From: Candidatus Roizmanbacteria bacterium
GTDB taxonomy: Bacteria; Patescibacteriota; Microgenomatia; UBA1406; GWC2-37-13
DNA: 64,000 nt
Assembly (NCBI GenBank): GCA_012798265.1
Contig: JAAZNM010000005.1
Location: 62,001-126,000 of the forward strand
Direction: 5' to 3'
Made by a program: the position numbers and the translations under genes. Position 1 is the stretch's first letter, and each line of letters opens with the position of its first letter. The notes below the pieces were generated by a model. That model was not told the origin of the DNA. It did not search any database and saw only the letters and a list, made by a program, of their open reading frames with translations. Below are positions 5,279-52,368 of this stretch, in pieces.

Positions 5279-5914
5279 TCACGGGGTCGGAGTCAGTGTG
5301 GTCGTAACCGTCGTAGTTATTTTTTTCAAGCATTTCATATAGTCCTGGGTCGAGCATCCCTTACCCAATTTTAACTTGATTTTTTGGCAGTCGGTTTCGT
5401 TACATTCGTAAATCACGTTGCGATCGCCGACTATCGGACTGATGGCGATGGTTTGAATCGGTTTAGGCAGATTGGTAGTATCGGCCGGAGTTTTGGTCGG
5501 CAAAGCCGTCGGAACAACCGTCTTTTTTTCGACGCCTTTTGTCGTAAACGTCCACGGTACCCCACCGTTATCATACTTCTTCTCGCCGATCCTTATCTGA
5601 AAATAATAGGTGGTATTGGGCGAAAGTAAAGTCAGATCGACCGAATGGCTTTTGGACCGTTGCACCTCTGGAGCGAAAAAATTAAGGGCCGTTGGCGAAT
5701 TGCCGTATTCGATTACCCCCTGGGTATCTATGCCCGAACTCCATGTGACTTTAACGCTGTTTTGACTGATATCGGAGATGATTACGTCCCGCGGTTCAAT
5801 GTCGGCCGCCCGAGTCAACACGCCGGCCATCAATCGGTACCCCATCACCAAAATAACAACCGCCACAATCGTTCCGATAATGATTGCCGCTATCTTGGTA
5901 ATTTTTTTGTCCAT
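5279..5914 (-). CDS. Membrane-anchored fibronectin type III protein
   Basis: A short cytoplasmic tail, one membrane helix at about residues 7-27, then one FN3-like domain at about 38-126. That domain shows VKVTWSS, GVIEYG and NTTYYFQIRI, all typical FN3 strands. A Thr/Pro-rich linker and a small Cys-containing tail (CNETDC, then CST, CLKK) follow. FN3 domains serve as spacers or binding modules in extracellular enzymes. The ATG at 5914 is preferred to an upstream TTG. This is the last gene of the nine-gene surface locus. Confidence 0.75.
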   Translation of the reverse strand: MDKKITKIAAIIIGTIVAVVILVMGYRLMAGVLTRAADIEPRDVIISDISQNSVKVTWSSGIDTQGVIEYGNSPTALNFFAPEVQRSKSHSVDLTLLSPNTTYYFQIRIGEKKYDNGGVPWTFTTKGVEKKTVVPTALPTKTPADTTNLPKPIQTIAISPIVGDRNVIYECNETDCQKIKLKLGKGCSTQDYMKCLKKITTTVTTTLTPTP

Positions 5915-5926
5915 AATTTCATGCAA

Positions 5927-5932
5927 ATTATA
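5927..5932 (-). promoter_or_regulatory. Possible internal -10 box for the FN3 gene
   Basis: TATAAT on the minus strand, 12 bases before the ATG at 5914. It overlaps the end of the preceding gene. Confidence 0.35.
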
Positions 5933-6578
5933 ACAATAAAAATCTTACCATTGTTCCTAAAAATAATAAGATCATTCCCGGAACGGCCAGTTTCGGAACT
6001 TCGTCAAAGTATCCGGTTTTCGGTAAAGCGGTCGGAGTCGGGCTGCCGTTATATGTACCCGGCGTCGGCGTGGCAGTAGCACTACTGCTTCCACCAACCG
6101 ATACGGCCGAAGTTCCGTTTTTGCTGCAAACCATAACGTTACTGGCGTTGATGTCGTTTTTAATTATTTTTGATGACTGACAGTCAAACGCCGCCGTCGC
6201 CGATCCGCTTTTTAGGGCTTTGAAGGTGATTGTCGCCAAAGTTCCGCTGCCAGTCTTTGAAGTAGCGGCATCATCGACCATGCCGGCGATATAAATTTTT
6301 CCAGAGGTGATGTTGTTGGTCACCGTCGGGAAAAAACTGCCGTTGGCGACAGACTGGGCCTCAAGGACCGATGAATCATATATTATATAAGAGTCGGCCG
6401 AGGACAACTGGTCGGATTCGGCGTCAATAACGACCGCCAGTTGAAAAGTATCGTTGGCGTTTGCCGAAACCGTTGTTTTGTCGAATTTGAAGTAAGCCGC
6501 TTTTACCTGGCCAAAAACAACCGGAGCGATAAACATCCCGGTTATAAGAAGCGAAAAAAATGATATCTTTAATCTCAT
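5928..6578 (-). CDS. Cohesin-like surface protein with LPKTG tail
   Basis: An N-terminal signal peptide (about residues 1-27) is followed by one cohesin-like beta-sandwich at about 28-160. It shows the family pattern: regular strands, YDSSVLEAQSV, and SGTLATITFKALKSG. A Ser/Thr/Pro linker leads to LPKTG, about ten residues, and a hydrophobic C-terminal helix with one Arg. That is the layout of a sortase sorting signal, although the positive tail is weak. Known cohesins bind dockerin domains, and two dockerin-bearing proteins are encoded just upstream. The start codon overlaps the preceding stop by one base. Confidence 0.8.
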   Translation of the reverse strand: MRLKISFFSLLITGMFIAPVVFGQVKAAYFKFDKTTVSANANDTFQLAVVIDAESDQLSSADSYIIYDSSVLEAQSVANGSFFPTVTNNITSGKIYIAGMVDDAATSKTGSGTLATITFKALKSGSATAAFDCQSSKIIKNDINASNVMVCSKNGTSAVSVGGSSSATATPTPGTYNGSPTPTALPKTGYFDEVPKLAVPGMILLFLGTMVRFLLL

Positions 6579-7168
6579 TATTCGACTTTAATTTGTATCT
6601 GATTTAAGTCCGGATAAACTATCTTGCTTTCGGCGTTGACCATCTGGGTTTTCTCCTTGTCAGAAGTCGTCAACAGAGTAAAACTGTACTGGCCTTTTTT
6701 TAAGCAGGCCAGATTGACCTCGACTATATCTTCACCTTTCAAAACAGAGTTGCTGTTTACCTGAAGTTTTTTCGTACCGGTGACTATCAACAGGTTATTT
6801 TTCTTTAAAGGATAAGATTTGAACATGGTTGACAGATCGCTTACACCGGTCAAACTAAAAGCATCCTGGCTGTAACCGATCAGGATATCAAAACCGCTGA
6901 CATCGTTGCCTAAGGAATCGGCCTTTACCAATAAACTTAAGGTGTCGCCAACTTTATAACTAAAACCGTTCCTGGGGTTAATTTTTATATAACCCGTCTT
7001 TTTTTTGGAAACAATAGCCACCTTGGCAACGTCACTTTGTTTGTCGCTTACTGTATTTTTTTGATCTTTGGTTTGGTTGAAAGATCTAAAAACCATTACT
7101 ACGACAATAAGAATACCTATTCCCAACAACAAAAAAATCGCCCGGTAATCTACTCTCTCCTCCTCCAT
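6578..7168 (-). CDS. Membrane-anchored cohesin-like protein
   Basis: One N-terminal membrane helix (about residues 10-27) precedes a single cohesin-like domain at about 58-190. The visible pattern is VGDTLSLLVKADS, VSGFDILIGYSQDAF and VEVNLACLKKGQYSFTLL, which matches the strand order of cohesin (PF00963)-like folds seen in the neighbouring genes. No catalytic residues are apparent. It probably presents the domain on the cell surface, anchored by its N-terminus. Similarity to the family is weak, so the assignment rests partly on the locus. Confidence 0.65.
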   Translation of the reverse strand: MEEERVDYRAIFLLLGIGILIVVVMVFRSFNQTKDQKNTVSDKQSDVAKVAIVSKKKTGYIKINPRNGFSYKVGDTLSLLVKADSLGNDVSGFDILIGYSQDAFSLTGVSDLSTMFKSYPLKKNNLLIVTGTKKLQVNSNSVLKGEDIVEVNLACLKKGQYSFTLLTTSDKEKTQMVNAESKIVYPDLNQIQIKVE

Positions 7169-7206
7169 AATTTATATGGTAACTGATTTGCCGAAAAAAG
7201 ACAATA

Positions 7207-9603
7207 TTATTCCTCGTCAAACCTCACCGACAAAGCGGCGATTATAAGCGAATAGTCCTGAGTGTCGACGACGCCGTCCATATTAAGGTCGGCTTTCCAT
7301 AGAGACTGATCGTCTTTTTTACCGAGATTGTTCGTCACCAAAGAGGTGTCGTACGAATTGACGACGCCATCCTGCTCCGGCAGATCGCCGACCAAGAGAG
7401 TGATTCCGGAGAAATCAAAGGCGTTTTGGCCTTTTTTTAAAGTAATCTTTCCTTCATCGCATCGATAACTGCCGGACAAAGTCTCGACAGGAGCGTTTTC
7501 GCAAATTTTTTTCTGGATATGGCGAAAACCCTTTATAAATAACCTGTAAGTATCATTTAAATATTGATCCTTAATATCAAGGTACACGTTACCCGTCCAC
7601 AGACCGTTGTCATTGGAGGTAAGATCGCCGCAACCGGTAGCCTTTGCCCCTTGGTTTGACAAAGCCTGGAGATTAACCCTGATCGTTTTGGCCGATGCCG
7701 GTTTTTTCGATATGCCTTGAAATTTAAGTTTCAAGCTCAAAACGACACTGCCGCTACTGCTGCAGGTCGGCATCGGTGTCGGAGACGGCGTTGCCGTTGG
7801 GGTTGGGGTTGCCGTCGGGATCGGGGTTTTGGTTGGGACCGCCGTTGGTGTTGGTGTTTTGGTGGGGGTCACGCTGGTTGACGGCGTCGGGGTTTTGGTG
7901 GGGGTTACGGTCACCGTCACCGACTGGGTCACGGTTGGCGTCGTTATGTTGCACTGAGGTGTCTTTTCGCCGATACCGCTGCAGGTCGGTCCCTGCTGGG
8001 TTCCGGCCGGCTGCTGGTCGATCTCAACCGCCCGCATCGCCTTATCGACCTCCACACAATAACTTGGGTTTGACGACCCGTAAAGATCGCTGCAAGCGCG
8101 AAGAACCGCATTATACATCGTCAAAAAGTTGGCCGATTGCGACAGATAATAAGTCAGGGCCCGATAGATTATCGGATGAGCCTTGGCTCTGGAGATACCG
8201 CTAATACTGCATCCGTTAAATGATCCGCCTGTCGCCATCAGATAAAAGGCTTTGTTTATAATGCCTTCATTGGCGTGTACTCCACCGTCGTCGCTGCTGC
8301 CGCAGGAATAGGAACCGGAAAAAAGTTTGTCCGGCTGGCTGTATTTGGTCGGATCGTCCATTCTTCTGATTACGCCGACGGTCGAACCCTCGCCCATCGT
8401 CCAGTTGTCATCAAGGGCATTGGCAAAGATATCGGAGATCGACTCGGCTAAGGCGCCGCTTTGGTAAGTGTAACTGAGACTGTCCCCCTCGACCCCATGG
8501 GTATATTCATGAGTAACGATATCGGTCATCGCCATACCGGAGCATAACACCAACACCTCGTCTTCAGGCAACCAAAAAGCGTTCGGACAGCTGTTGCCGT
8601 TATAATAAGCGTAGGCGACAATTTGCGAACCTTTGTTATCGTAACTGTCACGGCTGTATGTCTGTTTGTAATAGTTATAAACGCTACCTAAAATCGCATA
8701 GGTATTATCGACATCGGCTTTACCGTAAGACGCTCCTCCTTCCTGCCGACCCTTACAGGTGTTACCGCTGCAGGTCGGGTAATCGGCAACCGCCCGGTTA
8801 AGTACCGATCTTGTCAAGCTTTCGCTGTGGACGACCGTCCCGTTGACAAGATCGACAAAGTATCTCTTACCGAAAAAAGTTCCCGTTTTATAATCGCCGG
8901 TGACCGAGACCGCCAAAACCAGACGGTTACTCTCATCATCCCCCAACCCGACAACTCTTTTGTTGAAAATATACCGATCGGCTCGCACCACCTTAAGGAA
9001 AGCTTGACTACCCGCTTCTTCCCGGCTTTTTTTAACGGCTATCTCCTTGGCTTGATCGTCAGTAAGCTGGGCTTTTATCTCGTTAAAACCTTTTATTATG
9101 TTTCCTTCTATACCTGTCAGATCGTTGCCGTCTTTAAAATGGACAAAAACCTGTCCGGCATAAACCGGTATGCCGTTGAAATTCTGGTTGTAAAAAAAAT
9201 GCTCCCCTTTCAGACTAAAACCATGAGATTTAAGATAAGGATCTTCGCTGTCGGACTTTTTTGCCACCAAAGACAGTTGGCTGAAGTTTTCCCTGGGGAT
9301 GATCGTGTCCAAACTGACGCCGTTTTTTACCTTTAGATCGCGTCCCGCCAAAGAAACTATACCTAAAGAAGGTTGGCTAACGTTAATAAGCGTTGTGTCG
9401 TCCTTGCTATAAAGGGAAAACGAAACTACATTGTCCAGATCCTGATAGCGGGACGCTTTGACGGTTTTATCAAAATCAATCACCATCACCTCGGAATCGG
9501 CCCGACTTTTCTTGCTAAGAGAGTTATAAGATCGCTTAATGATAAATCCGAAGATCAAAAGACCGACTAACACTATGACTATTAACCGTTTATTTACTTT
9601 CAT
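7207..9603 (-). CDS. Thermolysin-family (M4) metallopeptidase with C-terminal dockerin
   Basis: Secreted or membrane-anchored zinc protease. Order of parts: N-terminal membrane helix; FTP/PepSY-like propeptide (about 70-200); M4 catalytic domain with HEYTH at about 363 (zinc His pair and catalytic Glu) and ALAESISD near 384 with the third zinc ligand Glu; Thr/Pro linker (about 545-615); a beta-rich module starting SLKLKFQGISKKPAS (about 623-730); then a type I dockerin (about 734-793) with DLNMDGVVDTQDY calcium loops. The ATG at 9603 overlaps the preceding gene by 14 bases. The dockerin suggests docking to a cohesin, probably one of the four encoded here. Confidence 0.9.
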   Translation of the reverse strand: MKVNKRLIVIVLVGLLIFGFIIKRSYNSLSKKSRADSEVMVIDFDKTVKASRYQDLDNVVSFSLYSKDDTTLINVSQPSLGIVSLAGRDLKVKNGVSLDTIIPRENFSQLSLVAKKSDSEDPYLKSHGFSLKGEHFFYNQNFNGIPVYAGQVFVHFKDGNDLTGIEGNIIKGFNEIKAQLTDDQAKEIAVKKSREEAGSQAFLKVVRADRYIFNKRVVGLGDDESNRLVLAVSVTGDYKTGTFFGKRYFVDLVNGTVVHSESLTRSVLNRAVADYPTCSGNTCKGRQEGGASYGKADVDNTYAILGSVYNYYKQTYSRDSYDNKGSQIVAYAYYNGNSCPNAFWLPEDEVLVLCSGMAMTDIVTHEYTHGVEGDSLSYTYQSGALAESISDIFANALDDNWTMGEGSTVGVIRRMDDPTKYSQPDKLFSGSYSCGSSDDGGVHANEGIINKAFYLMATGGSFNGCSISGISRAKAHPIIYRALTYYLSQSANFLTMYNAVLRACSDLYGSSNPSYCVEVDKAMRAVEIDQQPAGTQQGPTCSGIGEKTPQCNITTPTVTQSVTVTVTPTKTPTPSTSVTPTKTPTPTAVPTKTPIPTATPTPTATPSPTPMPTCSSSGSVVLSLKLKFQGISKKPASAKTIRVNLQALSNQGAKATGCGDLTSNDNGLWTGNVYLDIKDQYLNDTYRLFIKGFRHIQKKICENAPVETLSGSYRCDEGKITLKKGQNAFDFSGITLLVGDLPEQDGVVNSYDTSLVTNNLGKKDDQSLWKADLNMDGVVDTQDYSLIIAALSVRFDEE

Positions 9604-10420
9604 AATAAACCAGAGTAACCGTCCGATCACTACTAACCTCGCTCAATACGAAATTATAACCGAAAGAGGAAAAATTATCCTGTTTCAACCCCATAATCCC
9701 GCCTTCTTTAAAAAAAGACTCCTGTTTTTTTCCGTCCTTCATAACCCTGACGGTAATAACCGTCATGCAGTCCCGGCATCTGACATCGGGTTTTTCGACA
9801 CTTATAAGTTCTGCCGATAACCCCTTGGCCAAAGAGACGGGTTTGCCCAGATCAAGAGTTATTTTTTCCCCCGAACCGACACGAATATCCTCGGCTCGGC
9901 CAAGAATGTTAACGCTGTTGTCGTCGATCAGGTTAGTCTTGTTTCTCGTTCCCGCCTGCCAATCGATCTTAAAATCGATCATACCCTCTGCCTTCGTTTT
10001 GAATTTGATCTCGATCAACACAGTATTATCAAAAACAATATTGTTTTTTACCTCCGGTTTTTTCACTCCGGTGATGATTATCCTGTTTTTGAGCTGTTTT
10101 TTAAAGTATGAAAAGTCTGCCAACTGACGGCCCAAGCTCAACAGTATTACCTTATCTTCTGGATAATTGATGACTACGTCAAAACCGACGATGGGTTTTT
10201 TAACCGAATCGGCCACGACTATTATATTGCCTTCTTCTCCCGACACCAAAGACCGGCTACCTGATTGCAGTTTGATCGAGGCTTTCTGTTCTTTCACCGG
10301 TGCCGGTGTCACTGTAACAAGAGTACTTCCGCCTTTTAAGCGATTCAGTTGAATACTCCTCAAAAACAAAACAACCAAAAACAGGACGACGGTCACCACT
10401 AAGAAAACGGTTTTTTTCAT
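9590..10420 (-). CDS. Membrane-anchored cohesin-like protein with extra C-terminal domain
   Basis: An N-terminal membrane helix at about residues 3-20, a cohesin-like domain at about 45-170 (strands such as VGFDVVINYPEDKVILLSL and VLIEIKFKTKAEGMIDFKI), then a second beta-rich domain of about 100 residues with a CRDC motif. The second domain is unassigned. The ATG at 10420 lies 2 bases after the previous stop. An in-frame upstream start at 10486 would extend into that gene and gives no signal-like sequence. It overlaps the M4 peptidase start by 14 bases, so translation is likely coupled. Confidence 0.7.
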   Translation of the reverse strand: MKKTVFLVVTVVLFLVVLFLRSIQLNRLKGGSTLVTVTPAPVKEQKASIKLQSGSRSLVSGEEGNIIVVADSVKKPIVGFDVVINYPEDKVILLSLGRQLADFSYFKKQLKNRIIITGVKKPEVKNNIVFDNTVLIEIKFKTKAEGMIDFKIDWQAGTRNKTNLIDDNSVNILGRAEDIRVGSGEKITLDLGKPVSLAKGLSAELISVEKPDVRCRDCMTVITVRVMKDGKKQESFFKEGGIMGLKQDNFSSFGYNFVLSEVSSDRTVTLVYYESK

Positions 10421-10421
10421 T

Positions 10422-13400
10422 TTAAAGGTCGGGGCAAACGGCAATGTTTTTAAGAAGCAGGAATTTTTTCCCTTGAAGCTGGGCATCGGTCACCCCGGAA
10501 CAACCGTTACTGTTGCTGCAAAACTCAAAAGAATCGGCTATGACTTCGTCCAAGGCCGAAGAGTAGTTTATCTGCGGAGTTGATTGTTTTTTTATCGTCA
10601 AACCGGCGTTGGGATTGAAACTTAAGTTATCGGCGTTGCACGGAGAACAGTCCTTGGTAATTATGTTATTTATATTAAAGTCACCTATATACAGATTGGG
10701 GGTGTTTTTTGAGGAGTCGAGCGTCACGTTGGTATGGGTTTTGGAAGTGGATATTAGAGACATCAACAAGCTGTCTACCGGACTCGATATGCCTTGGCAG
10801 TTATTTAAATAATTTGAGGCATAAAAACCGTAAGTGGTCCCGTCCCGCATTAAACTGGTCGATGAAGGGGTCGGCGAAACGGTCGGACTGACCGTAACTT
10901 TAACGGTCGGCGAAACGGTAACGGTTATAGTCAAGGTCGGGATCTTGGTTGGGGTCAGGGTGATTGAAGGGGTCGGCGTCTTGGTCGGTGTCGATGTCGG
11001 GGTCAGGGTGATTGTTTTTTGCTCGCCTTCATCGGATCTTATTGATAATGCGTTAATCACCAATGAATAGTCCTGGGTGTCAACCACTTTATCGAGATTG
11101 ATGTCGGCCAGTTTTATCGACTCGCCGTCGGTTTTGCCGATGTTGTTACGAACTAATGAAGTATCGTACGAGTTCACTATACCGTCCTGGCTGGGAAGAT
11201 CACCGCTTAGCAAATAAATGTTGGTGAAGTCCAAGTTGTTGCTGCCGGCCTGAAGGGTAATCCGTCCGTCCTCGCAGTGATAAGTGCCGGCATAAGACTC
11301 CGCCGGCAAAGCATCACAGATTTTTTTCTGAACGTGTTTCGGACCTTTTATGAAAAACTTGTAGCCTGAACCGGGTTTGACATTGGTCAACGTCAACGAA
11401 CCCGTCCAGATACCCTTATCGTCAGAGGTGAAAGAAACATCGTCAAGCGACTGGGAGTAGGTCGCATTTTCCACCTTCGCCTTTACCGTCATTTTTTCCA
11501 AACCGGAGGCCGGTTTTTTAGTAATCCCCTGGAACTTCAACTTTAAGCTAACGATAACTGGAGCCGGACTGGTTGAAAGGTAGGGGGTTATCGTCGTTGT
11601 CGGCGTCACGGCTGATGTGACGGTAATAGTTGGCGTCAAAGTTGTCGCTGCTTGGCAACCACTTGCCTGGCTGTCCAAATCGCAGACTCCCGGACCGCCA
11701 AAAGCACCGACATCGGAGACCGATCCGTCGGGATTAAGTATGTCCGGACTGCCTTTTTTCCTGGCCGGAGAGTCGGACTTAAGATGAAAATCGGCCCCGT
11801 CTTTATTTATGAACTTCGGATCGGCATTGTTCAAAGACGACTGAATCACACACCATAGCGAGTCCGTTGCGCAACCGCTGGCATTGTTCCAAAAAAGGTT
11901 ATAAGCCAAAGTAAGATTCGCCTCCAGCTCTTTGGGAATATCGATACCCAACCCCTTTTTCCCGTCGCTTATGTTTTCGGCAAAGATGTTGTTTGATAAG
12001 TAGATGGTTCCGTCGCCGGTTTCGGGATTAGCGTCGATTACCGTATCGGAGTTGGTATCTTCGGTAACCGAACCATAAGCGGGATTGGCCGTTCCTGATA
12101 TATTGGTTTTATAGTAACAGGCGATCCGACCACTGCCCCCGGCCCCACCGACATAAGAGTTTGACCAACCGCTACCCCCGGCTCCACCGACAGCATTAAC
12201 CGAGTTAGTTCCCAGATTTACGGTATTGCCTATCAACTTTATTGAACCGCCGGCGCCGCCACCCCCGCCGCCGCCATACGAACCATTACTTGCTCCCGCC
12301 CCACCGTTACTATAGATAAATCCCCCTGAAGCGTTGATAGTGTCTGAGGCAATATAGACGATCCCGCCGCCGGCGCCGCCGTTGCTTCCCGTATAGGATG
12401 ACTGACTCACTTCGCCGGCGCCGCCACCCCCGCCACCCGAACCAAAATACAGTTTGGTCAAATTGGCGTTGGTCGTGGCAAAAACACCGCCGCCACCGCC
12501 GCCGCCGGCCCGACCGTGCCAATCCCAACCATAACTCCCTGTCCCGCCGGCACCACTACCTGACACGCCGCCGCTAACTCCTGGGTTATTGGATCCGTAT
12601 CCGCCTTGACCGCCGGCACCAGGACTACCGTATCCGCCGCCGCCGCCGCTACCCGGCAACCCATGGTAACTGCTGTGTCCGGCATACGCTCCGCCGCCGC
12701 CGCCGCCGGCACCGCCTTTACCCGAAGTACCGGACGAACCGTTATAGGCGCCGTAAGTTGAACCATAACCATATCCGCCACCACCCCCGCCGCCGCCGCA
12801 GTTATTGTTACTGTACCCGTTAGTACCGTACTGTCCGCCTGAAGCACCACCTGATGTCGACGGTTGCAAAGAATTACCGGCACAGAATGACTCGCCGCCG
12901 GCACCGCCGGCAAAGCTGGTTCCACCGGAACCCCCACGCCAACCACTGTCTGAAGTGTTTATCGTCCCAAAGTTATCGACCCTGTCGCTGGCCCTGAAAA
13001 ACATCACTCCTCCCCGGGCCCCGTCCCATTTGGATACGGTAAAAACAGCACTGCCGTTTACAGTCACTCTTTTATAATTCGGGACCCTTTGCAGCATTAC
13101 TCTTTGGGTATTGTTGGTCGTCCCCAAATTGGTGTCGTCATTGCTGTTTTCTCCATAGTACTTGACCTTATTGGTCGTAAAAGTAATCTTATCTCCGCTT
13201 ATGCTCTTTATTCTCAGGGCTTCGTAGTTACCCGTATTTACCCAGGATGAAGTCGTCCCTTCAAGGTTAATCAAAAGCACCTCGTCGTTATTGACTAGAC
13301 AGTTGGCAGCCGGCGTCGGTTTAACCCTGGCGTAGTCTGCTCCCAGTTCAAATACCGAAAAGTTGACGGCATCCCCCTGCTGGCTTTTGTCGGCGCAGCT

Positions 13401-14795
13401 CGTAGACCTTTGGCTAATCAAAGGTTGGGTATTGATATTAACCGTTCCCGTAACGGCGATATCTCCGTCAGAACCGCTACCCGGGTAGACCTTGACCGAT
13501 GCCGATGACGTACCCAAAACCGAACTGTCAGATAATGCCCTAGCCAGACTTAAGGTCTTTACCGCCTTCAAACCGGCCGTCTTATTGGCTACAAATGTGT
13601 TGTTTATCGCCTTTAGACTGCCACCGTTACCGGAGACCACCCCAGGCCGTTCGTTTTTGTAAAAAATACTGTTTTTTATGACCGCCTGAGCTCCCTGACT
13701 GACCAAAACACCTACTCCTCCATTCTCTTTAAAAACGTTTCCCGTGATGTTGGCAACGGCGCTGTCATAGAGATTGACTCCGGCACTGTCAAAACAGGTT
13801 TCGGTCGGAGTCTGGCTAAGACAGGTAACGCCATCAACCCGGCTAAATCCCGTGAACAAGATTTTTTTTATGTTTATGGTTCCGGCTCCGGCACAGACGC
13901 CGAACTGGGGTTTGGCTTTACTGTTTTTTCCGTCAAGTTTGGTGGTATTTTCTCCGACCAGATTAAGGTATTTGTTTTTCGTATCGATAAAACAGTTTAA
14001 AGTCGTTCCTGTTTTTGTAGTCACTTTGGAGACAGTGTCTTTTAAATAGTCTCCGGATTTAACCGTGATCGTCGAAGACAGGTTGCTGACTCCGGTCGTA
14101 TCTATCTTGACCGGCAAGACATTAACGGCTTTCTGTATACCTTCACCGCCGACAAAGGCACATTTGTCTTTGACAACCGTACCGCTTGGACAGACCGTAA
14201 GATTAAGGGCTTGGGTCGGATTGACTACAGTGTCAAAGACAGCGACCGGTTGGACACTGATCACCGTATCACCGCTAATTTTATAAACCGAGGAAAGACT
14301 CTCCTGGATGGGAATGATGCTTGAATCCGACTTCAGTTTTTTAATAGAGATGACAACCGCCTCTGCCGGCTGGCCGGCTGCCAACACCTTGCCGGTCGAC
14401 TCGACTATCTGACTCGACAAATCTATATAACCGTTACTGTTGACTTTTTGCAGATTACTACCATCATCCCCGTCCGATCTGACCGAGCCGATCTTGTAGT
14501 CGATTCCCGTTACTTCGATCCGGGTCTTATCGAAGTTGATCCTTGAGGTAAAAGCCCGCAGATTGACGGCCGATTCGGGATCGATCATCAAACTGAGGCT
14601 GGCCGTACCGTTACCGCTGTTTAATGAAACAGCCGCCTGACTGAAGTATAAAGATATTGTCTCTCCGGCAGCCCGACTTTTCTTTTGGGTATTTTGGTTA
14701 AAGTAAACGTAGCGGAAAACGGCGTAGGCAAAAACCAGGGTGACCGCCGATATAAAAAGAATGTTAGTTAATTTTTTTTTTAACGGTAAATCCAC
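10422..14795 (-). CDS. Giant surface protein: cohesin-like, beta-helix, Gly-rich and dockerin modules
   Basis: 1457 residues. Order of parts: N-terminal membrane helix (about 12-29); cohesin-like domain (about 45-170); right-handed beta-helix segment (about 298-415); a very Gly-rich stretch (about 612-892); a second beta-helix-like segment with a DxGAFGGPG ending (about 935-1040); Thr/Pro linker; a beta module SLKLKFQGITKKPAS (about 1079-1190) and type I dockerin (about 1194-1253, DINLDKVVDTQDY) like those of the M4 peptidase; a second Thr/Pro linker; and a C-terminal Cys-containing domain (1311-1457). The beta-helix suggests polysaccharide or surface binding, but no catalytic residues are recognised. 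Start is GTG. It carries both cohesin-like and dockerin domains. Confidence 0.8.
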   Translation of the reverse strand: MDLPLKKKLTNILFISAVTLVFAYAVFRYVYFNQNTQKKSRAAGETISLYFSQAAVSLNSGNGTASLSLMIDPESAVNLRAFTSRINFDKTRIEVTGIDYKIGSVRSDGDDGSNLQKVNSNGYIDLSSQIVESTGKVLAAGQPAEAVVISIKKLKSDSSIIPIQESLSSVYKISGDTVISVQPVAVFDTVVNPTQALNLTVCPSGTVVKDKCAFVGGEGIQKAVNVLPVKIDTTGVSNLSSTITVKSGDYLKDTVSKVTTKTGTTLNCFIDTKNKYLNLVGENTTKLDGKNSKAKPQFGVCAGAGTINIKKILFTGFSRVDGVTCLSQTPTETCFDSAGVNLYDSAVANITGNVFKENGGVGVLVSQGAQAVIKNSIFYKNERPGVVSGNGGSLKAINNTFVANKTAGLKAVKTLSLARALSDSSVLGTSSASVKVYPGSGSDGDIAVTGTVNINTQPLISQRSTSCADKSQQGDAVNFSVFELGADYARVKPTPAANCLVNNDEVLLINLEGTTSSWVNTGNYEALRIKSISGDKITFTTNKVKYYGENSNDDTNLGTTNNTQRVMLQRVPNYKRVTVNGSAVFTVSKWDGARGGVMFFRASDRVDNFGTINTSDSGWRGGSGGTSFAGGAGGESFCAGNSLQPSTSGGASGGQYGTNGYSNNNCGGGGGGGGYGYGSTYGAYNGSSGTSGKGGAGGGGGGAYAGHSSYHGLPGSGGGGGYGSPGAGGQGGYGSNNPGVSGGVSGSGAGGTGSYGWDWHGRAGGGGGGGVFATTNANLTKLYFGSGGGGGGAGEVSQSSYTGSNGGAGGGIVYIASDTINASGGFIYSNGGAGASNGSYGGGGGGGAGGSIKLIGNTVNLGTNSVNAVGGAGGSGWSNSYVGGAGGSGRIACYYKTNISGTANPAYGSVTEDTNSDTVIDANPETGDGTIYLSNNIFAENISDGKKGLGIDIPKELEANLTLAYNLFWNNASGCATDSLWCVIQSSLNNADPKFINKDGADFHLKSDSPARKKGSPDILNPDGSVSDVGAFGGPGVCDLDSQASGCQAATTLTPTITVTSAVTPTTTITPYLSTSPAPVIVSLKLKFQGITKKPASGLEKMTVKAKVENATYSQSLDDVSFTSDDKGIWTGSLTLTNVKPGSGYKFFIKGPKHVQKKICDALPAESYAGTYHCEDGRITLQAGSNNLDFTNIYLLSGDLPSQDGIVNSYDTSLVRNNIGKTDGESIKLADINLDKVVDTQDYSLVINALSIRSDEGEQKTITLTPTSTPTKTPTPSITLTPTKIPTLTITVTVSPTVKVTVSPTVSPTPSSTSLMRDGTTYGFYASNYLNNCQGISSPVDSLLMSLISTSKTHTNVTLDSSKNTPNLYIGDFNINNIITKDCSPCNADNLSFNPNAGLTIKKQSTPQINYSSALDEVIADSFEFCSNSNGCSGVTDAQLQGKKFLLLKNIAVCPDL

Positions 14796-14810
14796 GCCTG
14801 TATTTTTTAC

Positions 14811-15107
14811 TTATATTACTTTCAACAATCTGAAAAGCAAAAAGCTTATGAAATAAAAAAGTACTACTTGAAAAACCGGAATATACAAAGTCAAGAAGAT
14901 CGTCACTATCGCCAAAACAAAAAAGGCTTCGTTATGGATCGCCGGAAGCAGACCTTTGGTAATAAGCATAAGGATAACAATTGTCAAAAGTACTCGTTTA
15001 TCAAACCACCATAAAGACCAACCAAAAGCCCAAGCCAGTCCCAACAATACCGCGGCAAGAATAAGGAAGATCTCTTTTGTGTCAAAATAAAACGGTCCTA
15101 TATACAT
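14811..15107 (-). CDS. Small integral membrane protein, unknown function
   Basis: 98 residues, almost entirely hydrophobic, with about three to four membrane helices (near 12-30, 32-50, 55-72 and 75-95). No charged active-site pattern is recognised. It sits within the surface locus, 15 bases before the giant protein gene, and may help in its export or anchoring. That idea rests on position only. A -10-like box TACACT lies at 15115-15120, 7 bases before the ATG. Confidence 0.65.
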   Translation of the reverse strand: MYIGPFYFDTKEIFLILAAVLLGLAWAFGWSLWWFDKRVLLTIVILMLITKGLLPAIHNEAFFVLAIVTIFLTLYIPVFQVVLFYFISFLLFRLLKVI

Positions 15108-15114
15108 AAAATTA

Positions 15115-15120
15115 AGTGTA
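15115..15120 (-). promoter_or_regulatory. Possible internal -10 box, surface locus
   Basis: TACACT on the minus strand ending 7 bases before the ATG at 15107. It may start a sub-operon running from here to 5279. Confidence 0.4.
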
Positions 15121-15147
15121 AATTATTAAAAAATAAAAAACAAGCTG

Positions 15148-15579
15148 TTATTGGGTCTCAGGCTCCAGTACCGTGACTATCTGACCGTTAGGGTACTTCA
15201 GCTGACTGACCTTCATCTTTGTTCCCTGCTTGATGTTGATAAACGTTTTTTTTGACTTTGAGTCTTCGGCAGCCGATACGCCTTTGGCAACCGGTACAAA
15301 GACCAGGGCCGATTGGGGTTTGACGGTCGGTATGACTACCGACGAGGCCGTCTGACCGGAACCGGTTGGTTTTTGACTATTTTTCAAAGACGCGATAAAC
15401 CTGCCCGGCAACGAAGCAAAATACGAAGGGGCATTGATAACCCTATAGACGAAAAAGGGGTTGACCCTTGGAGTGTTGGCGACAAAAACCTGAGGAGCAA
15501 ATAACTTCACGGCCGCTACGCTAAAAAGCATGACCGCCAGTATTTTTATCTTTTTTGCCAAAAAATCGTTATTGTTCAT
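15148..15579 (-). CDS. Hypothetical membrane-anchored protein (143 aa)
   Basis: One N-terminal membrane helix (about residues 11-28), then a Ser/Thr/Pro/Val-rich stretch with no obvious fold. The C-terminus is Lys-rich (KTFINIKQGTKMKVSQL) and then ends VTVLEPETQ. No family recognised. The ATG at 15579 lies 9 bases after the stop of the Cys-rich gene and begins a good anchor sequence; the in-frame upstream extension has no support. It probably takes part in the same surface system. Confidence 0.6.
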   Translation of the reverse strand: MNNNDFLAKKIKILAVMLFSVAAVKLFAPQVFVANTPRVNPFFVYRVINAPSYFASLPGRFIASLKNSQKPTGSGQTASSVVIPTVKPQSALVFVPVAKGVSAAEDSKSKKTFINIKQGTKMKVSQLKYPNGQIVTVLEPETQ

Positions 15580-15587
15580 AAAATAAA

Positions 15588-17165
15588 TCAAAGACTTATA
15601 ACCAGACACGTATTCCCTCCCTGCAACATCTGGCATTTTTTGCCGTTAGGCAAACTTATTACGTTGACTACCTCCGAGGTCGTCTCCGCCTGGGTAACCG
15701 TATCGCCAATCGCCGTAAAGGAAGGATTTTGGGTACTGCAGCCACAATAAGTCTTCATATACTCTTTATCGGTAGTCTGCAAACATCTATTATTCTCATT
15801 TTTATAATAATAAGTGCCACCTGACTGGTCATATCTTTTTCCGTTAGAAAAAGTTGTCCCTGCATTATTTGTACAAAACTCGTCACAACCATTTGTTTGC
15901 GAAGAACATCTGCTACTGCATAGGCAATGAGATGATAATTCTGTTTGACCTCCTATATACGTACAAGCTCCATCGTTTTTGTAGTATTTATCGTTACCGC
16001 CATCGTAATAACTTGCTCCGCTATTGGTACTCTCTCCCACATAATTTTGGCAATAAGTGGTACAGGCAATGGGATTGCTGCCACATACTGCCGAAGGAGT
16101 TGGAGAGTATGGATTAGAGGTGCTGCACCCACAATGGGTTTTTATATACTCTTTGTCGGCGGTTTTGAAACACTTGCCATTATTGTAGTAATAATTTCCT
16201 CCATCTGTTTTTATTGAGTTGGTATTGGAATATACATAGCCTTCATTCTGGCAAAAAACATTACAATACATGTTTACTGGATCACACTTGGTCTGACAGT
16301 TACAATAAGCGCCCAACCCTCCTGATATTAAAGAACAACTTCCGTCAGCCTTGTAATAGTTGCCTCCACCGCCGTCATAATAACTGTAACCCGAGTTGGT
16401 AGATTCTCCCACTATATTGGTACAGTAAGTAGAACACGAGGTTTTGTTCGATTCCAAACACCTTTGGCCTGAGGGCAAAGGGGTTGTGATCGGCGTCGGA
16501 TTCTGACCTCCGGGCGTAGGATTGTTTGGGGCGGTAGTCGGATTGGAAGCTCCTCCGTAATATCCGCTCGGACAAGAGCTGTTTTCGCATCTCAGTTTGT
16601 TGTTTGGGCCCATATCAGAACATTGGATAACCTGTTGTCCCGAAACATTAATGGTCGAACAGTTATTACCAGTGCAATCATATGAATGCCATCTTATCCT
16701 CAACTGGCTGTAACCGCATTTGTTGCCGTTGCCGTCTGCCGGTGCATTGCACTTTATATCTTTTACGCAACACTTGGCACAACCTTCATACCCTGAGATA
16801 TCTCCTCCCGGACGCGGAGTCGGTGTCGGTGTCTTTGTCGGACCAGAAGTCGGAGCTGATGACGGAATTTTTGTCGGGGTTGGTGTTGGAGCCGCACAAC
16901 TGGTTCCGCATTTATCAAGATGGTTATAGTTGTAACATCTTTCTCCCTGTTTCGGTCCGAAACAACAATAACCGCCGGAAACAGTACTTCCTACCGCATA
17001 ACATTTACCATTGGTTTCACATCCGGCACAAGCTGCTTTTGATCCGGTCGTCTGTTTTGTTTTATTTATGAAGGTAGAAGAAACTAAAGTGGTTACCCCA
17101 AGGATAATTAAGCTACCGATGGTAATGACGGTCGCGATTTCTCCACGTTCATGAAGTCTTTTCAT
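15588..17165 (-). CDS. Cys-rich tandem-repeat surface protein with pilin-like N-terminus
   Basis: 525 residues. The N-terminus RGEIATVITIGSLII followed by a helix to about 30 resembles a type III (prepilin-like) signal, although the canonical Gly-Phe cleavage site is missing. Then come a Cys-rich segment (45-90), a Thr/Pro linker (91-120), another Cys-rich part (128-205), and two tandem copies of a two-module unit (236-358 and 361-489). Each unit has about a dozen cysteines and the words VGESTNSG, YYDGG and ADKEY or TDKEY followed by a CGCST turn. Many disulfides are likely, so it should act outside the cell. First gene of the surface locus. A -10 box lies at 17175-17180. Confidence 0.7.
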   Translation of the reverse strand: MKRLHERGEIATVITIGSLIILGVTTLVSSTFINKTKQTTGSKAACAGCETNGKCYAVGSTVSGGYCCFGPKQGERCYNYNHLDKCGTSCAAPTPTPTKIPSSAPTSGPTKTPTPTPRPGGDISGYEGCAKCCVKDIKCNAPADGNGNKCGYSQLRIRWHSYDCTGNNCSTINVSGQQVIQCSDMGPNNKLRCENSSCPSGYYGGASNPTTAPNNPTPGGQNPTPITTPLPSGQRCLESNKTSCSTYCTNIVGESTNSGYSYYDGGGGNYYKADGSCSLISGGLGAYCNCQTKCDPVNMYCNVFCQNEGYVYSNTNSIKTDGGNYYYNNGKCFKTADKEYIKTHCGCSTSNPYSPTPSAVCGSNPIACTTYCQNYVGESTNSGASYYDGGNDKYYKNDGACTYIGGQTELSSHCLCSSRCSSQTNGCDEFCTNNAGTTFSNGKRYDQSGGTYYYKNENNRCLQTTDKEYMKTYCGCSTQNPSFTAIGDTVTQAETTSEVVNVISLPNGKKCQMLQGGNTCLVISL

Positions 17166-51531: not shown

Positions 51532-52275
51532 TTATTCTTTAAGCCTGACGGCAAATACAAGCAGTCTTTTAAGGGTGGTACCGGGTGGCCAACATGTCTG
51601 AAGGGTAAGAAACTCCTTGTTTGTTTTTCTGGTCATATACTCCACCCTGTCGGGATCAACCACTTCCCGTCCGATTACCTTGTATATGTAACGTTGACCT
51701 TTATAAAAAAGATCTATTTCGTCATTTTTTTCCAACTTGTTCAGCAGATAAAAAACGGCGTTATAGGTACCGACGTTCCAAAAATAGTCTGTCGAATGGG
51801 CAAAAAGAAAGATGTGGCCGCCTTCTCCTGGGAAAGCCGTTCCCAAAGTATGGGCCACGCCTTTAGATAAGGCGGTAAGATAAACGCCGTCATTGGAGGC
51901 ATCCACATTGGCAAGAATCCTGGCGTTGGCTCCGATTTTGGGAATGACTATACTGAATTCAGGATCCTCGGGAGTGAGTATCTCCACCTGTTTGAAATTA
52001 ATGGTTTTGGCCAACAGTCCTTTTTGGATCGGAGCCTCAACGGTACTCTTGACCGGTTCTTTGCCCTTTATCAGATACTGTTTTTTCAAAAGGCTGTTGG
52101 TGTAGTATCTGATCTCTTCCCTAACCGGTAGGTAAAAAGTCTTACCGATTATAAACAAAGATGACAATATCAAAAAATTACCAAAAGTCCTGATCGTAAG
52201 AATCTTCAGATATTCCGGAGTTTTTACCTTGTTTTTGATATGGTGATGAAAGGCCTTCAGCTTTGACTTTGGCAT
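51532..52275 (-). CDS. Sortase (class D/E-like transpeptidase)
   Basis: 247 residues. One N-terminal membrane helix at about 32-50. The sortase fold has IPKIGANARIL, the catalytic His in LFAHSTDYF (about 157), and TLQTCWPPGTTLKR with the catalytic Cys (about 226) and Arg (about 235). It joins LPxTG-type proteins to a cell-surface amine. A candidate substrate with LPKTG is encoded at 5928-6578. The ATG at 52275 lies 21 bases after a tRNA-Arg gene on the same strand, so it may be made from a tRNA-mRNA transcript. An upstream in-frame start would overlap the tRNA. Confidence 0.93.
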   Translation of the reverse strand: MPKSKLKAFHHHIKNKVKTPEYLKILTIRTFGNFLILSSLFIIGKTFYLPVREEIRYYTNSLLKKQYLIKGKEPVKSTVEAPIQKGLLAKTINFKQVEILTPEDPEFSIVIPKIGANARILANVDASNDGVYLTALSKGVAHTLGTAFPGEGGHIFLFAHSTDYFWNVGTYNAVFYLLNKLEKNDEIDLFYKGQRYIYKVIGREVVDPDRVEYMTRKTNKEFLTLQTCWPPGTTLKRLLVFAVRLKE

Positions 52276-52296
52276 TATTTTTATTTTAAACTTAGG

Positions 52297-52368
52297 TGTC
52301 CCTAGAGGGAATTGAACCCCCATCTTACCCTTAGGACGGGTCTGCTCTATCCGTTGAGCTATAGAGAC
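52297..52368 (-). tRNA. tRNA-Arg (anticodon CCT)
   Basis: Acceptor GTCTCTA/TAGGGAC with one G-U, anticodon loop GTCCTAA with CCT, T-arm GGGGG-TTCAATT-CCCTC. Reads AGG. The outermost pair of the anticodon stem (position 27-43) is G-A. CCA not encoded. The sortase gene follows on the same strand. Confidence 0.9.

What the first reader, a model, noticed from the sequence alone, without database searches (positions are those of the whole stretch)
5279..17165. Cohesin/dockerin surface locus in a presumed CPR bacterium
Nine consecutive minus-strand genes encode at least four cohesin-like domains (5928, 6578, 9590 and the N-terminus of 10422-14795) and two type I dockerins (M4 peptidase and the giant protein), with FN3, Cys-rich and small membrane partners. 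Cohesin-dockerin pairs are established as the glue of cellulosomes, but here the enzyme is a protease and there is no cellulase. I infer a self-assembling, cell-anchored proteolytic complex.
Basis: partly seen in the sequence, partly recalled or inferred. Interest (0 to 1): 0.82.

Follow-up and report, generated by a model that had tools for sequence, protein, structure and literature searches.

The report
Cohesin–dockerin surface locus in Microgenomates
A tiny uncultured bacterium carries the snap-together protein connectors best known from cellulose-digesting machines, and its relatives keep the same small anchor operon while swapping what it holds, so it looks like a general surface-display system and not a dedicated protein-digesting machine.

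Summary
All four proposed cohesin-like domains are supported: 5928 by Pfam, 6578 by an AlphaFold fold whose 39 best PDB matches are cohesins or cohesin-containing chains, 9590 and the giant N-terminus by profile comparison. Both dockerins pass Pfam cut-offs. The genome groups with Candidatus Roizmanbacteria (Microgenomates, CPR).

Cohesin is in 44 of 44 good genomes of the family and dockerin in 39 of 44. A core order, X-dockerin protein – membrane cohesin – sortase-type cohesin – FN3 protein, recurs in other families of the class. Cargo attached to the X–dockerin varies: 38 proteins form 17 unrelated groups, and M4 peptidase occurs in only 3 of 72 family genomes. The protease is one swappable load, not the purpose of the system.

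Best reading: a lineage-wide, non-cellulosomal cohesin–dockerin display apparatus, resembling sortase-anchored ScaE of Ruminococcus and the Coh–X–Doc end of CipA. No cohesin–dockerin binding was shown here.

The parts
5279..5926 (-). Membrane/secreted FN3-like protein (Pur_ac_phosph_N/fn3 domain plus conserved Cys tail); last gene of the conserved core
   Evidence: Pfam; orthologues in 19 of the 20 family operons compared, window included
5928..6578 (-). Cohesin with signal peptide and C-terminal sortase-type signal
   Evidence: Pfam Cohesin 45.3 bits; alignment A1 with invariant LP..G; relative L103 passes PF00746 Gram_pos_anchor
6012..6026 (-). LPKTG motif followed by hydrophobic segment
   Evidence: sequence; L, P and G invariant in 20 aligned sequences
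6578..7168 (-). Membrane-anchored cohesin-like protein (one N-terminal TM, one cohesin fold)
   Evidence: AlphaFold and Foldseek; profile match to A1
7207..9630 (-). M4 (thermolysin-family) peptidase with C-terminal X-dockerin
   Evidence: Pfam; HEYTH and downstream E present in the sequence
7404..7745 (-). X module of the M4 protein
   Evidence: A9 model hit
7230..7373 (-). Type I dockerin of the M4 protein
9590..10486 (-). Second membrane cohesin-like protein, paralogue of 6578, with extra C-terminal domain
   Evidence: phmmer 1e-11 to 6578; p6578 model 2e-48
10422..14795 (-). Giant Coh-(beta-helix/Gly-rich cargo)-X-Doc protein
   Evidence: Pfam beta-helix and dockerin; N-terminal cohesin by profile
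14205..14657 (-). Cohesin-like domain at the giant protein's N-terminus
   Evidence: A5 vs A1 hhalign E=1.3e-15
11222..11557 (-). X module of the giant protein
   Evidence: A9 model hit
11045..11188 (-). Type I dockerin of the giant protein
14811..15107 (-). 98-aa multi-spanning membrane protein, 77% mean column identity in the family; no Pfam or NCBIfam hit
   Evidence: often but not always linked to the cohesin operon
15148..15636 (-). Small membrane protein, partly conserved upstream neighbour
   Evidence: hits in L037-L041 and L046
15588..17165 (-). Cys-rich secreted protein with SKA motif after its TM segment
   Evidence: sequence; distant homologues in L052, L053
51532..52323 (-). Sortase, candidate enzyme for the LPKTG cohesin
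   Evidence: PF04203 82.2 bits; a second sortase on G000:C8

Best explanation
The locus encodes a non-cellulosomal cohesin-dockerin display apparatus on the cell surface. Two kinds of cohesin anchors are fixed to the cell: an LPxTG cohesin attached by sortase and membrane-spanning cohesins. Secreted proteins that end in an X-dockerin pair are then captured by these anchors. One such protein (here the giant one) has its own N-terminal cohesin and works as an adaptor, Coh...X-Doc. The load differs between genomes; here it includes an M4 protease and a beta-helix/Gly-rich protein. Shown: domain identities, predicted folds, conserved gene order, variable cargo. Inferred: cohesin-dockerin binding, sortase cleavage, signal cleavage at the S-K/R-A motif, and the biological role (display of adhesive or degradative proteins toward substrate or host).
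For: Domains. The model of the compact homologue L051 reads TM-Coh-X-Doc, and its best PDB matches are CipA Coh-X-DocII trimodules (3kcp, 4fl4; E=4.8e-13 over 357 columns). Family: cohesin in 44/44 and dockerin in 39/44 good genomes; gene order conserved. Class: X-Doc, membrane cohesin, LPxTG cohesin, FN3 adjacent in other families, with Pfam-level cohesins and Gram_pos_anchor in L103. Linkage seen independently of cohesin: 29 of 43 named loci found with the 98-aa protein alone carry both cohesin and X-dockerin. S/T-K/R/Q-A motif after the TM in 27/42 X-dockerin and 30/35 FN3 proteins but 0/35 membrane cohesins, as expected if the former are released. Cargo varies while anchors persist.
Against: No interface was modelled and no binding measured. 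The first calcium loop of many of the dockerins has a conserved insertion (GDLP.QDG) that departs from the canonical 12-residue loop, so folding or affinity may differ. Some genomes keep cohesin but have no detected dockerin (G023, G031, G033, G046). The LPKTG tail lacks the usual basic cluster, and the window's own protein gets no LPXTG model hit.
Confidence: 0.72

Rival explanations
1. One reading: a dedicated, self-assembling, cell-anchored proteolytic complex.
For: M4 peptidase with X-dockerin sits in the operon here and in L093; another M4-X-Doc protein is in G053.
Against: M4_C in 3 of 72 family genomes against cohesin in 68; most X-dockerin proteins have no recognisable protease.
Confidence: 0.1
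2. Cohesin-fold and dockerin domains act only as structural stalk and calcium modules in separate surface adhesins; the two never bind one another.
For: The cohesin sandwich also resembles other adhesive domains (integrins and an adhesin appear lower); dockerin-like repeats occur without cohesins in other genomes (control hits).
Against: X-Doc and cohesin genes are adjacent across families; Coh-X-Doc order equals CipA; all four cohesin-negative family genomes are also dockerin-negative (hand count, chance 4.8e-4, but those genomes are incomplete).
Confidence: 0.13
3. The anchored cohesins mainly capture dockerin proteins of other community members, or hold the cell to a host that displays dockerins.
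For: CPR bacteria depend on partners (general knowledge); cohesins outlast detected dockerins in several genomes.
Against: Own X-dockerin proteins are encoded in the same operon in nearly all loci examined.
Confidence: 0.05

Closest known systems
Ruminococcus flavefaciens ScaE anchoring scaffoldin and its X-dockerin partners, including a cysteine peptidase (PMC12484212, read; structure paper PMC3573020 listed)
   Same: Single cohesin covalently anchored by sortase; partners carry X-dockerin pairs; one partner is a peptidase
   Different: No cellulase, CBM3 or multi-cohesin scaffoldin found here; extra membrane-spanning cohesins; different cohesin sequence class; CPR host
C. thermocellum CipA C-terminal Coh-X-DocII trimodule (3kcp, 4fl4)
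   Same: Same module order and overall folds in the compact scaffold
   Different: Single cohesin, N-terminal TM/signal, variable cargo between cohesin and X; X module matches no Pfam family
Non-cellulosomal cohesins (Archaeoglobus 2xdh; Clostridium perfringens glycoside hydrolase cohesins 2vo8, 2jh2)
   Same: Cohesin fold outside cellulose degradation; among the best fold matches of 6578
   Different: Here arranged as a conserved anchor operon with X-dockerin partners
CPR surface and sortase repertoire (PMC6744442)
   Same: Sortase reported as near ubiquitous in Microgenomates
   Different: That paper's text does not mention cohesin or dockerin

Membership tests
Cohesin (PF00963) | Profile match above curated cut-off | tested here: met
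   5928-6578: 45.3 bits vs 24.1; 6578, 9590 and giant-N do not reach it themselves
Cohesin (PF00963) | Cohesin beta-sandwich fold | tested here: met
   6578 model, TM-score on target up to 0.84, top 39 hits cohesins or cohesin-containing chains; giant-N tested only through homologue L051
Cohesin (PF00963) | Binds a dockerin | not testable with these tools
   Single-chain folding only
Dockerin type I (PF00404) | Profile match above cut-off | tested here: met
   29.0 and 27.1 bits vs 22.9; alignment matches more than 20 solved dockerin chains
Dockerin type I (PF00404) | Two canonical calcium-binding loops | tested here: inconclusive
   Second loop DLNMDGVVDTQD is canonical; first loop has a conserved insertion in many members and is canonical in L037-L039
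Sortase (LPXTG) substrate | Signal peptide, LPxTG, TM, basic tail; sortase in the genome | tested here: inconclusive
   LP.(S/T)G motif kept in 20 aligned sequences, two sortases, PF00746 met in L103; no model hit for the window protein
Cellulosome | Dockerin-bearing cellulases and CBM-bearing multi-cohesin scaffoldin | tested here: not met
   No GH5 cellulase or CBM3 in genome; each window protein has one cohesin-like domain; other GH families not searched genome-wide

The most novel reading that the evidence does not exclude
The Coh-X-Doc protein binds head to tail, the dockerin of one copy in the cohesin of the next, forming a surface fibre capped at the base by the membrane and sortase-anchored cohesins and decorated with swappable dockerin proteins: a self-polymerising appendage of CPR cells.
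Probability: 0.13. Interest if true: 0.85.

Novelty: new variant of a known kind. Interest (0 to 1): 0.62.

Why it matters
Cohesin-dockerin pairs are usually read as signs of plant-fibre digestion; metagenome surveys count them that way (PMC7038595). Here they appear as a conserved surface operon in a reduced-genome, probably host-dependent lineage without GH5 cellulase or CBM3. If true, a whole class of uncultured bacteria builds part of its outer protein layer from plug-in modules, and the partners can be tested at once with purified domains. It also gives a new source of cohesin-dockerin pairs for protein engineering.

Tried and rejected
Direct Pfam search of 6578, 9590, 14811, 15148 and the Cys-rich protein gave nothing significant, and NCBIfam gave nothing for 14811, 15148 and the Cys-rich protein. 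Promoter and terminator scans gave 28 vs 19.4 and 19 vs 16.8 expected, not informative. A general FN3-protein model hits most class genomes and is not specific to the locus. The 98-aa membrane protein was considered as part of the core but lies far from the cohesin operon in G014 and G060. Full-text searches found no paper describing cohesin-dockerin loci in Roizmanbacteria, Microgenomates or Woesebacteria; subscription journals are mostly not covered.

Full report
What is there. Nine minus-strand ORFs run from 17165 to 5279 with almost no space between them. From the 5' end of the transcript: a Cys-rich secreted protein, two small membrane proteins, the giant protein, a membrane cohesin-like protein (9590), the M4 peptidase, a second membrane cohesin-like protein (6578), a cohesin (5928) and an FN3-like protein (5279). 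Downstream and convergent lies an M50 peptidase gene, with ribosomal protein L28 and peptide deformylase beyond it.

Cohesins. The 5928 protein passes Pfam Cohesin clearly and is the only PF00963 hit in the genome. Twenty aligned sequences (A1) keep an invariant LP..G motif before a C-terminal hydrophobic segment, the layout of a sortase substrate; in the relative L103 the same gene passes both Cohesin and Gram_pos_anchor. The genome has two sortases, one inside this window at 51532-52323. The 6578 and 9590 proteins are paralogues. Their family matches A1 profile to profile at E=5.5e-11, and the AlphaFold model of 6578 has a domain at pLDDT 96-99 whose 39 best PDB matches are cohesins or cohesin-containing chains. 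The N-terminus of the giant protein matches A1 at E=1.3e-15 through its family. All four proposed domains are therefore cohesin-like, three of them too divergent for Pfam.

Dockerins. Both pass Pfam. Each is preceded by the same ~115-residue module with a strongly conserved KGPKH.QKK.C motif, for which Pfam gave no family. Module plus dockerin is an X-dockerin pair. The compact homologue L051, without cargo, was modelled as TM-cohesin-X-dockerin; its best PDB matches run along the CipA trimodule cohesin-X-dockerin II. The large overall rmsd means module order and fold are matched, not the relative orientation. The window's giant protein looks like such an adaptor with a beta-helix and Gly-rich load between cohesin and X.

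Organism and conservation. A search with the 98-aa protein returned loci mostly labelled Candidatus Roizmanbacteria, with a few Woesebacteria and Shapirobacteria and one labelled Chloroflexi; several are the same contigs as unnamed family members (equal lengths, e.g. 334448 and 1216931 bases). In the family, cohesin is found in 68 of 72 genomes and in 44 of 44 of good quality, dockerin in 60 of 72 and 39 of 44. Nineteen family loci chosen for carrying cohesins or dockerins, plus the window, show the same order of X-Doc, membrane cohesin, LPxTG cohesin and FN3, apart from L035 and L036 with genes inserted and L049 with no FN3 gene at its end. Of the 43 loci found with the 98-aa protein alone, 29 have both cohesin and X-dockerin within the fetched DNA. 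In other families of the class, 13 of 20 regions examined keep X-dockerin, cohesin and FN3 genes in that order, most with the membrane cohesin between; these regions were mostly picked because X or cohesin and FN3 hits shared a contig, so the fraction is not a frequency.

Cargo. The parts upstream of the X-dockerin in 38 proteins fall into 17 groups without detectable similarity; the largest group of 14 is the Coh-X-Doc adaptor. By contrast all 190 pairs of the LPxTG cohesin and 197 of 210 pairs of the membrane cohesin are recognisably similar. Domains seen include M4, NHL, VWA, beta-helix and CARDB; neighbouring dockerin proteins include one with a Hint domain. M4_C is in 3 of 72 family genomes. 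So the protease is real and probably active (HEYTH and the downstream glutamate are present), but it is a local load.

Localisation. Just after the N-terminal hydrophobic segment, a S/T-K/R/Q-A motif is present in 27 of 42 X-dockerin proteins and 30 of 35 FN3 proteins but in none of 35 membrane cohesins. This fits signal cleavage and release of the former and retention of the latter. It is a pattern match, not a test of cleavage.

How it most likely works (inference from here). Membrane and sortase-linked cohesins form a fixed set of sockets; released X-dockerin proteins plug in; the Coh-X-Doc adaptor extends the chain or carries a further dockerin protein. What the display is for is not settled: adhesion to a host or substrate, or local degradation, are both possible.

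Compared with what is known. A sortase-anchored single cohesin that binds X-dockerin partners, one of them a peptidase, is known from ScaE of Ruminococcus flavefaciens (PMC12484212). The present system works like that but is not a cellulosome: no GH5 cellulase or CBM3 is in the genome and no multi-cohesin scaffoldin was found in the window. No held paper was found that describes such loci in this lineage. Limits: binding was not tested, the X module was not searched for outside the class, and uncaptured literature may exist.

Noticed in passing
window 14811-15107 and alignment A3: A 98-aa multi-spanning membrane protein is the most conserved product of the region (77% mean column identity) yet matches no Pfam or NCBIfam family; in some genomes it lies far from the cohesin operon.
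   Followed up: partly
L039:11846-13273: A dockerin protein in a relative's operon carries a Hint-type (pretoxin/intein-like) domain (Pfam E=3.4e-5, just below cut-off).
   Followed up: no
L034:7918-9312 (G000:C6, outside the window): Third X-dockerin protein of this genome, with the pair near its N-terminus and a Cys-rich tail, next to a PMT-type mannosyltransferase gene; L042 has a PMT gene inside the operon, hinting at glycosylated surface proteins.
   Followed up: partly
window ~12000-12900: The giant protein contains a long Gly-rich stretch (GGGGGG-type repeats) between the beta-helix and the X module.
   Followed up: no
L109-L111, L117-L119: Another family of the class (f2) has a rearranged locus in which the FN3-like protein is about twice as long and LPxTG-like tails sit on other proteins.
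   Followed up: no
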